Source of the DNA: Candidatus Solirubrobacter pratensis
Lineage (GTDB): Bacteria > Actinomycetota > Thermoleophilia > Solirubrobacterales > Solirubrobacteraceae
Direction: 5' to 3'
NCBI RefSeq assembly: GCF_000425945.1
Contig: NZ_AUEK01000009.1
Coordinates: forward strand, 186,001-250,000
DNA length: 64,000 nucleotides
Positions 9,843 to 14,075 of the stretch are shown in pieces. How positions within the stretch are numbered: the first letter of the stretch is position 1; each line of letters opens with the position of its first letter. The notes beneath the pieces were generated by a model. That model searched no databases and was not told where the DNA came from. It was given only the letters and a program-made list of their open reading frames with translations. Position numbers and translations under genes: made by a program.

Positions 9843-9915
9843 GAAGGCCACTGTAACGACCCCGAGACGCCCGGTGTACGAAGCACCGAGGAGCAGGAAG
9901 CAAGACCGGAGTCCA

Positions 9916-11583
9916 ATGGATCACGCCCATTTCCACAAGCGCGCGCGCAGCCGCGGCGTCAACCCGATCGTCTACTGGATCATGCGCATGCTGCTGCAGC
10001 CGTTCGCGCATCTCTACTGGCGGCTGTCGCGCATCGGGCGCGAGCACATCCCCGAGCGCGGGGCGGTGATCCTGGCGTCCAACCACCGCTCGTTCCTGGA
10101 CCCGTTCATCATCGGCCTGATGAGCCGCCGGCCCGTCTATTACGTGGCCAAGGAAGAGCTCTTCCACAACCGCCTCTTCGGCTGGTTCATCAGCTCGCTC
10201 GGCGCGTTCCCCGTCAACCGCGGCGCCGCCGACGCGGAGATGGTCCAGACCGCGCGCGCGATCCTGGACCGCGGCGATCCGCTGCTGATCTTCCCTGAGG
10301 GCACGCGCATCCGCCCCGGCGCGCTCGGCAAGCCCAAGCGAGGCGTCGGGCGCCTCGTGCTCGAGTCCGGCGCGCCCGTCGTCCCGATCGCGGTGATCGG
10401 CACGGAGGCGGTGCGCAAGGGCTGGCGCATCCGCCCGCACAAGATCCGCGTGCGCGCCGGCAGCCCGCTGCGCTTCCCGAAGATGGAGGCGGCGACCGGC
10501 CCGATCGCCGCCCGCGTCACCGACCGCATCTGGCCGAACATCATGCTCCAGTGGGAGTGGCTCGGCGGCCTGCCGCCGCTGCGCCGCGCCGCGATCGTCG
10601 GCGGCGGCTCGTGGGGAACGGCCTTCGCCGTCATGCTCGCCCGCGCCGGGATCGACGCCGACCTCGGCTGCCGCACCGCGGTGCAGGCCGAGCTGCTCGC
10701 GGGCGCGCGCACCAATGAGCGCTATCTCCCGGGCGTCGACCTCCCGGCGCGCGTGCATCCGGTGCGCGCGTCCGAGCTCGAGCTCGGCCGCTACGACCTC
10801 GTCGTGTTCGCCGTGCCCGCCGCCGAGCTCCCCGCCGCGGTCGCCGAGCACGCGCCGGGGATCGCGCCGCGCACCGGCGTGCTGATGCTCGCCAAGGGGC
10901 TCGTCCCGCCGCTGGGCTCGCTGCCGAGCGCCTTCGTCGCCGAGCGGACGCGCAGCTGGGCGATCGGCGCGCTCGGCGGCCCCGGGCACGCGGGCGGCGC
11001 GCTCGAGGCCGGCGCCTCGCTCGTGCTCGCGACGCACAACGCCGCGTTCGCGCGCCAGGTGATCGACGCGCTCGCCGCCGCGGGGCTCGACGTCACGCAC
11101 ACCGGCGACGTGGTAGGCGTGGAGCTCGCCGGCTGCGCGAAGAACGCGGCCGCGCTCGCCGCCGCCGCGGCCGGCTCCGCCGGCCCCAACGCCGCGGGCG
11201 CCGCCGCCGGGAAGGTCTTCGCCGAGGTCGACGCCTACGCGCGCCGGGCCGGCTCGCGTCCGGGGACGTTCGCGGGCCTCGCCGGCGCCGGGGACCTCGT
11301 GGCGACCGTGCTCGCCGAGGGCTCGCGCAACCGCCGCGCCGGCGAGCTGCTCGCGACCGGCGTGCCCGCCGACGAGATCTGCGCCGCGCTGGGGCAGACG
11401 GCGGAGGCGGTCGCGGCCGTGCCGCTGCTGTCCGAGCGGCTGCGGGAGGCGGGCGTCGCGGCACCCGTGCTGCACGGCCTCGCCGGGATCATCGCCGGCA
11501 GCGTCGAGCCCGAGCGCTGGAGGGCGTCGTTGACGGCGCCGGTGGTTGCGACCAAGGCGAACGCGAAGGCGTCGGCTGCCTAG
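9916..11583 (+). CDS. Fused 1-acyl-glycerol-3-phosphate acyltransferase / glycerol-3-phosphate dehydrogenase
   Basis: One 555-residue frame joins two enzymes of phospholipid synthesis. Residues 1-215 are a PlsC-type acyltransferase: NHRSFLD (H-x4-D) near 55, the glycerol-phosphate motif FPEGTRIRPG near 125, and VVPIAVIG. Residues 222-545 are a GpsA-type NAD(P) dehydrogenase: VGGGSWGTAFAVMLARAG, MLAKGL, the catalytic Lys in GCAKNAAAL near 407 and GLAGAGDL near 454. GpsA makes sn-glycerol-3-phosphate; PlsC acylates its monoacyl derivative. The junction (WEWLGGLPPLRRAA) has no stop or internal SD. CCGGAG precedes the ATG. Confidence 0.92.
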   Translation: MDHAHFHKRARSRGVNPIVYWIMRMLLQPFAHLYWRLSRIGREHIPERGAVILASNHRSFLDPFIIGLMSRRPVYYVAKEELFHNRLFGWFISSLGAFPVNRGAADAEMVQTARAILDRGDPLLIFPEGTRIRPGALGKPKRGVGRLVLESGAPVVPIAVIGTEAVRKGWRIRPHKIRVRAGSPLRFPKMEAATGPIAARVTDRIWPNIMLQWEWLGGLPPLRRAAIVGGGSWGTAFAVMLARAGIDADLGCRTAVQAELLAGARTNERYLPGVDLPARVHPVRASELELGRYDLVVFAVPAAELPAAVAEHAPGIAPRTGVLMLAKGLVPPLGSLPSAFVAERTRSWAIGALGGPGHAGGALEAGASLVLATHNAAFARQVIDALAAAGLDVTHTGDVVGVELAGCAKNAAALAAAAAGSAGPNAAGAAAGKVFAEVDAYARRAGSRPGTFAGLAGAGDLVATVLAEGSRNRRAGELLATGVPADEICAALGQTAEAVAAVPLLSERLREAGVAAPVLHGLAGIIAGSVEPERWRASLTAPVVATKANAKASAA

Positions 11584-11619: not shown

Positions 11620-12186
11620 ATGTCCGCTGCACCCGACTCCGCGCGCAGGGACAAAGCGACGCTCGACGCCGCCTTCGCGGAGCTCTACAAGGCGCACCTG
11701 CGGGACGTCTACTCCTACTCGTACTACCGGGTGGGCAACCACCACGACGCCGAGGACCTGACCGAGCAGACGTTCCTGCAGGCGTACCGGCACTTCGAGC
11801 GCGCGCAGAAGGAGTCGCAGGGGCGGCCGCTGCGCCCGTGGCTGATCCGGATCGCGCACAACCTCGCGGCGAACTACTACCGCGACCGCTCGCGCCGTCC
11901 GCAGACGAACATCGACGACGCGGGCGCGATCTCGACGCCGCACACGACCGAGGCGCTGGTGCAGGATCGCGACGACCTGGCGCGCATCCTGCGCGGCGTC
12001 CAGCAACTGCCGGACGACCGCCGCGAGGCGCTGATCATGCGCTTCGCGCTGGGGATGGACAACCGCGAGATCGCGCGGGCGCTTGGCCGCACCGACGGCG
12101 CGACGAAGGTGCTGCTGCACCGTGCCATCCGGCAGCTCGAGGAGATCGTCCACAAGGACGCCAACGGCGCGAGGCCCGCGGGGTGA
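11620..12186 (+). CDS. ECF-type sigma-70 factor
   Basis: The 188-residue protein has sigma region 2 (AFAELYKAHLRDVYSYSYY through AEDLTEQTFLQAYRHF, with RPWLIRIAHNLAANYYRD) and region 4 (LPDDRREALIMRFALGMDNR, then EIARALGRTDGATKVLLHRA). Spacing and length are those of ECF factors. No cysteine-rich anti-sigma factor with the H-x3-C-x2-C motif follows; the next gene is a small one-pass membrane protein with no such motif. Start at ATG 11620, with GGGAG just upstream. The sigma factor is intact and is distinct from the dead copy at 3.3 kb. Confidence 0.93.
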   Translation: MSAAPDSARRDKATLDAAFAELYKAHLRDVYSYSYYRVGNHHDAEDLTEQTFLQAYRHFERAQKESQGRPLRPWLIRIAHNLAANYYRDRSRRPQTNIDDAGAISTPHTTEALVQDRDDLARILRGVQQLPDDRREALIMRFALGMDNREIARALGRTDGATKVLLHRAIRQLEEIVHKDANGARPAG

Positions 12187-12249
12187 CCGCATGAGCATCT
12201 GCGAAGCGATGCTCGAAGCGGCCGTCGCGACGAGCGACGGTGGTCGCCG

Positions 12250-12627
12250 GTGAGCCCGGACACGTTCGGCGACCTCGAGGCCGCGCTCAGGCGCGCGCTC
12301 GCGCCGGTCGACCCGCCGGTCGAGCTGCAGGAGCGCGTCGAGCGGACGCTGGACTCGATCGTCGAGCTGGCCGCCGACGAGCTCGAGGGCTGGGAGCTGG
12401 CGGGCCTGAAGGACCCGCGCAACTGGCCGCGCGCCGCGATCGGCCCGGCCGCCGCGGTCGTGGTCGGCGGCGGCGCCGCGGCCGGCCTCGTCGTGCTGCG
12501 CACGCAGCGCCGCCGGCACAAGCGCCGCGCCGCCGCGCGCGGTGTGGTCGACCTCGCGGGCCGGACCGCGCGCGACGTCGCGCGTGAGGCCCTGCGCGTG
12601 TTCGACGATCTGGCGCCCGACCGCTGA
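12250..12627 (+). CDS. One-pass membrane protein next to the ECF sigma factor
   Basis: The 125-residue product begins at GTG 12250. A cytosolic helix-rich part (LEAALRRALAPVDPPVELQE, then LDSIVELAADELEGWEL) is followed by one membrane segment (AAAVVVGGGAAAGLVVL), an Arg/His-rich stretch (RTQRRRHKRRAAAR) and a helical tail. Position and topology suggest a partner of the sigma factor, but the zinc-binding anti-sigma motif is absent. Whether it binds the sigma factor is inference from position only. About 60 bases separate the two genes, so they may be co-transcribed. Confidence 0.7.
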   Translation: MSPDTFGDLEAALRRALAPVDPPVELQERVERTLDSIVELAADELEGWELAGLKDPRNWPRAAIGPAAAVVVGGGAAAGLVVLRTQRRRHKRRAAARGVVDLAGRTARDVAREALRVFDDLAPDR

Positions 12628-12693
12628 TCCGCGTGGGCGCGCCGCGCGCACGGCCGCGGTCGTCGCTGCCAAGATGACCTGGTGGTCCCGCTG

Positions 12694-13248
12694 ATGCGCC
12701 GCTACTTCGCCTCCCGCCAGGAGCTCGAGGCATGGCTGGAGGACGACCCGCCGGCGGAGGGCGTGTGGGTCCTGTTCCCGCGCGCGCGGTCCGGCGCTCC
12801 GGGCATCTCGCACGCCGAGGCGCTCGAGGCCGCGCTGTGCTTCGGCTGGATCGACGCGCAGAAGGGCGTCGGCGACGAGACGCACTGGTGCCAGCGCTTC
12901 ATGCCTCGCACGAAGCGCAGCATCTGGTCGAAGGTCAACCGCGCCAAGGCCGAGGCGCTGATCGCGAGCGGCGCGATGCGGCCGTCCGGGCTCGCCGAGG
13001 TCGAGCGCGCGAAGGCCGACGGCCGCTGGGACGGGGCCTACGACGCCGCGAGCACGGCGACGGTCCCGGACGACCTCGCGGAGGCGCTCGAGGGGGCCGG
13101 CGGCCGCGCGTTCTTCGACGCGCTCAACTCCCGCAACCGCTATGCGATCCTCCATCGCGTGCAGACGGCCAAGAAGCCCGAGACACGCGCCCGCCGGATC
13201 GGCAAGTTCGCCGCGATGTGCGCGGCGGGTGAGCGAATCTACCCTTAA
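12694..13248 (+). CDS. YdeI/OmpD-associated family protein
   Basis: The roughly 184-residue protein matches the YdeI family: FASRQELEAWLEDD at the start, GISHAEALEAALCFGWIDAQ, and the signature QRFMPRTKRSIWSKVNRAKA. The C-terminal YdeI helix region includes RNRYAILHRVQTAKKPETRA. Family members are small cytosolic proteins; the E. coli member was linked to stress and peptide resistance, but no reaction is known. The start is ATG 12694; GTG 12682 in the same frame would add four residues. It is a single gene between the sigma pair and the rhomboid gene. Confidence 0.87.
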   Translation: MRRYFASRQELEAWLEDDPPAEGVWVLFPRARSGAPGISHAEALEAALCFGWIDAQKGVGDETHWCQRFMPRTKRSIWSKVNRAKAEALIASGAMRPSGLAEVERAKADGRWDGAYDAASTATVPDDLAEALEGAGGRAFFDALNSRNRYAILHRVQTAKKPETRARRIGKFAAMCAAGERIYP

Positions 13249-13274
13249 AGCACCACTGCTAGCGTCGCCCGCGA

Positions 13275-14075
13275 ATGGCCACCTGCTACCGCCACCCGAG
13301 CCGCGAGACGGGCGTGTCCTGCTCGAACTGCGGGAACCCGATCTGTCCGGACTGCATGACCGCGACGCCGGTCGGCATGCGCTGCCCCGAGTGCGCGCGC
13401 CAGAAGACCCGGGTGCGGAGCGCGCGCACGATCGCCGTGGACCCGATCGTGACCTACGCGCTGATCGCGATCAACGTGCTGGTCTACATCGGCACGAGCT
13501 CCAGCGGCTCGGCGCTCGGCGGGTCCCAGGGCGGCTCGGTGTACCAGAACTTCGCGCTCAACGGGCCCGACGTCGCGGCGGGCGACTGGTGGCGGCTCGT
13601 CACCAGCGGCTTCCTGCACTACGGGCTGCTGCACATCGCGTTGAACATGTACGTGCTGTGGTGGCTGGGGCGCGAGCTCGAGCCGTCGCTCGGGCACGTG
13701 CGCTTCGCGGCGATCTACTTCGCCTCGATGCTGTGCGGCTCGTTCGGCGCCCTGCTGATCACGCCGGACTCGCTCACCGCGGGCGCCTCCGGCGCGATCT
13801 TCGGCCTCTTCGGCGCCGCATTCATGATCGGCCGCGCACGCGGGATCGACGTGATGCGCAACGGCATCGGGCCGTTGATCCTGTTCAACCTGGTCTTCAC
13901 GTTCCTGGTCGGCGGGATCTCGATCGGCGGCCATATCGGCGGGCTGATCGGCGGCGGCATCGCCGGCGCGGTGATGGAGTACTTCGCGCAGCGACGCGGG
14001 TCGACGATCCCCGGCCTCGCGGCGTGCGTCGTGCTGAGCGCGGCGGCGATCGCCGCGTCGTTCGCGGTCGCCTAG
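13275..14075 (+). CDS. Rhomboid family intramembrane serine protease with N-terminal zinc finger
   Basis: The 266-residue membrane protein has a B-box-like zinc finger at its N-terminus (CYRHPSRETGVSCSNCGNPI followed by CPDC and CPEC). Six hydrophobic segments follow. The rhomboid signatures are present: HYGLLHIALNMYVLWWLG for the H-x-x-x-N motif, the catalytic Ser in AGASGAIFGLFGA, and the catalytic His in SIGGHIGGLIGG. It cleaves other membrane proteins within the bilayer; its substrate here is unknown. The zinc finger fusion is common in actinobacterial members. The 3' end overlaps the convergent BtuF-like gene by four bases. Confidence 0.93.
   Translation: MATCYRHPSRETGVSCSNCGNPICPDCMTATPVGMRCPECARQKTRVRSARTIAVDPIVTYALIAINVLVYIGTSSSGSALGGSQGGSVYQNFALNGPDVAAGDWWRLVTSGFLHYGLLHIALNMYVLWWLGRELEPSLGHVRFAAIYFASMLCGSFGALLITPDSLTAGASGAIFGLFGAAFMIGRARGIDVMRNGIGPLILFNLVFTFLVGGISIGGHIGGLIGGGIAGAVMEYFAQRRGSTIPGLAACVVLSAAAIAASFAVA

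What the first reader, a model, noticed from the sequence alone, without database searches (positions are those of the whole stretch)
9916..11583. PlsC-GpsA fusion protein
One polypeptide combines glycerol-3-phosphate synthesis (GpsA) with acylglycerol-phosphate acylation (PlsC). The product of the C-terminal enzyme is one step away from the substrate of the N-terminal one, with PlsB/PlsY missing, suggesting either a larger complex or substrate channelling.
Basis: partly seen in the sequence, partly recalled or inferred. Interest (0 to 1): 0.6.

Follow-up and report, generated by a model that had tools for sequence, protein, structure and literature searches.

The report
GpsA–PlsC fused phospholipid-precursor enzyme
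In one order of soil bacteria (Solirubrobacterales) the enzyme that makes the glycerol-phosphate backbone of membrane lipids is fused to an enzyme that attaches fatty acids to it, in a lineage that has lost the usual enzyme for the step in between, so how these bacteria start a phospholipid becomes a concrete, testable question.

Summary
Window 9916-11583 (+) is one open frame of 555 aa with a PlsC-type acyltransferase (Pfam 41-160) and a complete GpsA (226-534), both with intact active-site motifs. It is not an assembly accident. The fusion is full length in about 65 of 103 sampled genomes of the order, including isolates and closed chromosomes, joined by a nearly invariant, fixed-length linker. 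It was not found elsewhere in the class or phylum samples. In two families of the order the fused GpsA is the only GpsA, so it must work there. In the other two families a stand-alone copy exists, and the fused half has repeatedly been lost or has lost catalytic residues; in this window it is intact. PlsB is absent from 97 of 99 class genomes. PlsY, nearly universal in the rest of the class, is missing from 48 of 53 genomes of the order, while PlsX is kept. The missing first acylation is most simply done by a PF01553 protein. The best candidate is a sister paralogue, often beside glycerol kinase, with a PlsB-like EGGRSRTG motif; the fused PlsC half is the alternative. No assay settles this. 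It is a new architecture of known enzymes, clade-wide and apparently undescribed.

The parts
9908..9911 (+). GGAG, possible ribosome-binding site 4 nt before the ATG
   Evidence: read in the sequence
9916..11583 (+). fused PlsC-type acyltransferase / GpsA coding sequence, 555 aa
10036..10395 (+). PF01553 acyltransferase domain (residues 41-160)
10084..10101 (+). block I HX4D motif (HRSFLD, residues 57-62); NHRSF[LMIFV]D in 75 of 75 fusion-type proteins
10291..10308 (+). block III FPEGTR (residues 126-131)
10498..10581 (+). linker: predicted helix 195-215 plus junction VTDRIWPxxxLQWEWLGGxPxxRR, fixed length and near invariant
10591..11037 (+). GpsA N-terminal NAD(P)-binding domain PF01210 (226-374)
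11107..11517 (+). GpsA C-terminal domain PF07479 (398-534) with K409, N410, D460, T464, R471, N472, Q494 intact
11620..12186 (+). downstream ECF-type sigma factor, recurrent neighbour of the fusion; not part of the enzyme

Best explanation
A bifunctional enzyme of phospholipid precursor synthesis, fixed in the ancestor of the order. The C-terminal GpsA half reduces dihydroxyacetone phosphate to sn-glycerol-3-phosphate. The N-terminal PF01553 half, tied to it by a short conserved helix, is an acyltransferase of the PlsC kind, most likely acylating lysophosphatidate to phosphatidate. The step between, lost with PlsY, is most likely done by a separate PF01553 paralogue (own genome G000:C7:3308-4021), universal in the genomes of the order examined for it, often next to glycerol kinase and with a PlsB-like EGGRSRTG block. 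Shown: the fusion, its conservation, intact motifs, sole-GpsA status in two families, loss of PlsY and absence of PlsB. Inferred: the activities, the division of labour, and any benefit from physical coupling.
For: Domains and active-site residues. Fixed 14-aa gap between the two profile matches in 54 of 58 fused frames and a near-invariant junction. In f2 and f4 all 43 genomes with a GpsA match have exactly one, 42 of them in fusion-sized frames and one a fragment, and catalytic residues are essentially kept in the f2 and f4 fusions checked. Where the fused GpsA is lost or dead, a stand-alone GpsA is present in nearly all genomes examined. PlsY 5/53 in the order vs 137/146 outside, Fisher p 5e-31; PlsX 53/53; PlsB domain PF19277 over the cut-off in 2 of 99. 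Fusion-type PlsC (75) and its sister 'L003-type' (19) form one clade, support 0.99. L003-type lies beside glpK in 9 of 17 genomes from all four families (three of these GlpKs checked, TIGR01311 over cut-off), and its block III EGGRSR[TS]G equals that of PlsB in G081, G056 and PDB 9vuq, whereas the fusion keeps the PlsC-like FPEGTR.
Against: No activity was measured. The fusion's block I (HRS) is the one that resembles PlsB, so motif evidence points both ways. Some genomes of the order (G139, G194, G218, G180, G236, G244) have no fusion, and those of them tested for PlsY (G139, G194, G180) lack it too; three of them (G180, G194, G244) show a single PF01553 protein, so the division of labour cannot be the same everywhere unless those drafts are incomplete. 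PlsX is kept without PlsY, which leaves its acyl-phosphate product unexplained.
Confidence: 0.5

Rival explanations
1. The PlsC half is itself the missing G3P acyltransferase (or dual, like mycobacterial PlsM), so the fusion carries out DHAP to lysophosphatidate, or on to phosphatidate, in one polypeptide.
For: It is fused to the enzyme that makes its would-be substrate, in the clade that lost PlsY. PlsM, annotated as a PlsC, acylates both G3P and LPA in a lineage without PlsX/PlsY (PMC10593935). Its block I is invariantly HRS, as in PlsB.
Against: Block III is the PlsC-like FPEGTR. The fusion is missing from several genomes that also lack PlsY. The L003-type paralogue is more universal, often sits beside glycerol kinase and has the PlsB block III.
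Confidence: 0.33
2. The two halves act as separate proteins, through internal initiation or proteolysis, and the fusion has no functional meaning.
For: In families f2 and f4 many sequences have an ATG at the first residue of the GpsA domain, with a GG-rich stretch upstream. Unfused PlsC exists at the same locus in genus g9.
Against: In the window that residue is encoded by CTG; the only ATG nearby (-13) is not conserved (M, Q or E among others in relatives) and has a poor ribosome-site match. The junction is among the most conserved parts and forms one predicted helix.
Confidence: 0.07
3. The GpsA half in this genome is a redundant, decaying leftover; the stand-alone GpsA (G000:C4:580432-581421) does the work.
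For: The stand-alone paralogue is present here. In other genomes with two copies the fused GpsA has lost catalytic residues (e.g. G103, G118, G206, G210) or is broken.
Against: All eight catalytic-type residues checked are intact here and its profile score equals that of the stand-alone copy (442 vs 444 bits). In f2 and f4 the fused form is the only one.
Confidence: 0.1

Closest known systems
GpsA, NAD(P)H-dependent glycerol-3-phosphate dehydrogenase (e.g. 3k96, 1z82)
   Same: Both Pfam domains, fold (Z 38 to 3k96 over 321 residues) and active-site residues
   Different: Fused behind an acyltransferase; scores below the NCBIfam subfamily cut-offs (185 of 257 bits)
[quoted passage not shown] maritima 5kym)
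   Same: HX4D, FPEGTR and the other blocks; sequence match over 21-185
   Different: C-terminal GpsA; TIGR00530 score just under cut-off (98.7 of 102.95); belongs to an order-specific paralogue pair
PlsM of mycobacteria (PMC10593935)
   Same: PF01553-type protein in an actinobacterial lineage without PlsY, where a 'PlsC' takes G3P
   Different: PlsM is not fused; mycobacteria also lack PlsX and have PlsB2; orthology not tested
der-plsY-gpsA and cmk-plsC-ispH gene groups of the rest of the class
   Same: Same enzymes, encoded together
   Different: Separate genes, with PlsY present
Dunaliella DsGPDH (6iuy), a two-domain GPDH
   Same: A GpsA-type dehydrogenase fused to another domain (appears)
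   Different: The partner is not an acyltransferase (my knowledge: a phosphatase-type HAD domain, giving glycerol from DHAP)

Membership tests
GpsA (NAD(P)H-dependent G3P dehydrogenase) | PF01210 and PF07479 domains in order | tested here: met
GpsA (NAD(P)H-dependent G3P dehydrogenase) | catalytic Lys/Asn/Asp/Thr/Arg set kept | tested here: met
   K327, K409, N410, D460, T464, R471, N472, Q494; residue roles from general knowledge of GPDH structures
GpsA (NAD(P)H-dependent G3P dehydrogenase) | DHAP reduction with NAD(P)H | not testable with these tools
   needs an assay; indirectly supported by sole-copy status in f2 and f4
PlsC / LPAAT (TIGR00530) | PF01553 with HX4D and EGTR blocks | tested here: met
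PlsC / LPAAT (TIGR00530) | curated TIGR00530 score | tested here: inconclusive
   98.7 bits against a cut-off of 102.95
PlsC / LPAAT (TIGR00530) | acyl transfer to sn-2 of lysophosphatidate | not testable with these tools
   needs an assay
PlsM-type G3P acyltransferase | acyl transfer to G3P by a PlsC-like protein | not testable with these tools
   analogy only, PMC10593935
PlsM-type G3P acyltransferase | orthology to Rv2182c | not tested
   sequence not at hand
PlsB G3P acyltransferase | GPAT_C domain PF19277 and about 800 aa length | tested here: not met
   no PF19277 in this genome; the L003-type paralogue shares only the EGGRSRTG block

The most novel reading that the evidence does not exclude
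The fusion is a self-contained DHAP-to-lysophosphatidate (or phosphatidate) synthase: its PlsC-like half has become the G3P acyltransferase that replaced PlsY across a bacterial order, another solution to the first step of phospholipid synthesis besides PlsB and PlsX/PlsY.
Probability: 0.3. Interest if true: 0.7.

Novelty: new variant of a known kind. Interest (0 to 1): 0.5.

Why it matters
PlsY and PlsB are the two textbook enzymes that start phospholipid synthesis in bacteria. Here a whole order has nearly lost the first and lacks the second, keeps PlsX, and carries two related PlsC-like proteins: one fused to GpsA, the other often beside glycerol kinase, the two usual sources of G3P. Whichever takes G3P, the order is another lineage-level answer to the first acylation, and the fusion is a natural test of whether backbone synthesis is coupled to membrane lipid synthesis. 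It also shows that annotation by halves (PlsC, GpsA) hides a pathway gap.

Tried and rejected
Assembly or frameshift artefact: rejected. Chance ORF: rejected by domains and conservation. PlsY missed for divergence: a divergent PlsY from the same genus found no match in this genome at E 0.1; four genomes in that sample have it, so absence is not absolute in the order. PlsB: PF19277 absent here. Fusions elsewhere in the phylum: none spanned both domains outside the order among the listed matches of 396 genomes, though the match list was cut. Literature: no paper on the fusion found; subscription journals are not held. The Paenarthrobacter hit (L026) shows no gpsA beside plsC; its next genes are uvrC and rapZ. 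VIA-align and Foldseek lists are filled by the GpsA half, so the PlsC half was not tested by fold.

Full report
The observation. The frame at 9916-11583 encodes 555 residues without interruption. Pfam finds an acyltransferase domain at 41-160 and both GpsA domains at 226-374 and 398-534. Sequence matches to solved structures divide the same way: T. maritima PlsC (5kym) at 21-185, GpsA (3k96, 1z82) at 224-530. An AlphaFold2 model (mean pLDDT 80.9, pTM 0.68, 16-sequence alignment) gives two domains joined through helix 195-215; the GpsA half aligns to 3k96 with Z 38, rmsd 2.1 over 321 residues.

Distribution. Relatives with the same full layout were found in 15 loci of the GTDB species collection, all Solirubrobacteraceae or -ales by their titles except three MAG labels (two plain Actinobacteria/Actinomycetota, one 'Bifidobacterium breve'). 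In a class-wide sample of 299 genomes about 65 of 103 genomes of the order (four families, f1-f4) have a full-length fused frame at 49-75% identity (my count); several more are cut by contig ends. Outside the order only separate halves match, and no listed match in 396 genomes of the phylum spans both halves outside the order. The loci next to the fusion usually hold an ECF-type sigma factor and a small protein.

The junction. The gap between the two profile matches is 14 aa in 54 of 58 fused frames, and the linker (V..RIWP...LQWEWLGG.P..RR) is among the most conserved stretches. No start codon is conserved there in the window's family. The window has CTG where many f2 and f4 sequences carry an ATG at the first residue of GpsA; internal starts therefore cannot be excluded in f2 and f4.

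Is the fused GpsA active? The window's copy keeps all eight catalytic-type residues checked. In families f2 and f4, 43 genomes have exactly one GpsA each; 42 of these matches lie in fusion-sized frames and one is a fragment (my count). The f2 and f4 fusions checked keep the catalytic residues, apart from Thr to Ser in one and Gln to His in f4. Families f1 and f3 mostly have a second, stand-alone GpsA, about 43-53% identical, from a duplication within the order (support 0.98 for all GpsA of the order together; the clade of fused copies itself is weakly supported, 0.28). There the fused half has been lost or inactivated repeatedly: unfused PlsC in genera g9, g13 and g15 and in G220, G226, G163 and G254; in-frame but dead GpsA in G103 and G118; K409T in G206, G252 and G294. 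The placement of the two basal unfused pairs (G163/G254 and G121/G142) leaves open that these are ancestral rather than lost. Nearly all such genomes keep the stand-alone copy. The exceptions are genus g14 members G139, G163, G194 and G218 and a few others with no GpsA match at all. This pattern supports real activity where the fused copy is the only one and shows that the physical coupling is dispensable.

The missing step. PlsY is found in 137 of 146 sampled class genomes outside the order and 5 of 53 inside it (p 5e-31; genomes are related, so the p-value overstates independence); this genome has none. PlsB's GPAT_C domain is over cut-off in 2 of 99 class genomes, not in this one. PlsX is in 53 of 53 genomes of the order. 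Outside the order the class has der-plsY-gpsA and cmk-plsC-ispH gene groups (der assigned by position and my reading of its sequence). Within it, PF01553 proteins of the fusion type form a clade with a sister 'L003-type' (support 0.99). The L003-type was found in nearly every genome of the order examined for it, including those without the fusion. It lies beside glycerol kinase in 9 of 17 genomes and carries EGGRSR[TS]G, the block III of PlsB as read in G081, G056 and PDB 9vuq. The fusion type keeps FPEGTR but has HRS in block I, as PlsB does. Motifs therefore favour the L003-type as the G3P acyltransferase, without excluding the fused half.

Mechanism. The rival is that the fused half takes G3P directly, as mycobacterial PlsM does (PMC10593935, read). 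Genomes without the fusion and with a single PF01553 protein (G180, G194, G244, all about 90% complete drafts) need either a dual enzyme or are incomplete. No result here shows channelling.

Novelty. The enzymes are known; the architecture, its restriction to one order and its link with loss of PlsY were not found in the open literature searched. I rate it a new variant of a known kind.

Noticed in passing
G139 (C1, single contig), also G163, G194, G218: These genus g14 genomes lack GpsA; G139, G194 and G218 also lack the fusion, and PlsY was not found in the members tested, so their G3P source and first acylation are unknown.
   Followed up: partly
class sample: PlsX is kept in all 53 sampled genomes of the order although its partner PlsY is absent from 48; the use of its acyl-phosphate product is unexplained.
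   Followed up: partly
L101 4880-6730 (G103) and L147 (G118): The fused GpsA half stays in frame over its length but has lost its catalytic residues, a possible pseudoenzyme kept as a domain.
   Followed up: partly
L019 (CAMCUD010000003.1): A MAG titled Bifidobacterium breve carries a Solirubrobacterales-type fusion, so the record's organism label is probably wrong.
   Followed up: no
L215 5082-7349, L216 5154-7415: glpK followed directly by a PlsC-like gene with a PlsB-type EGGRSR block, seen in all four families; a candidate unrecognised G3P acyltransferase.
   Followed up: partly
G017, G107, G157, G166, G184, G301, G302: A divergent PlsY-like protein is present sporadically in the order, including one genome of the window's own genus.
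   Followed up: partly
window 11620-14075: An ECF sigma factor, a 125-aa protein without a Pfam match and a further downstream protein (266 aa, 13275-14075) have counterparts near the fusion in several genomes.
   Followed up: no
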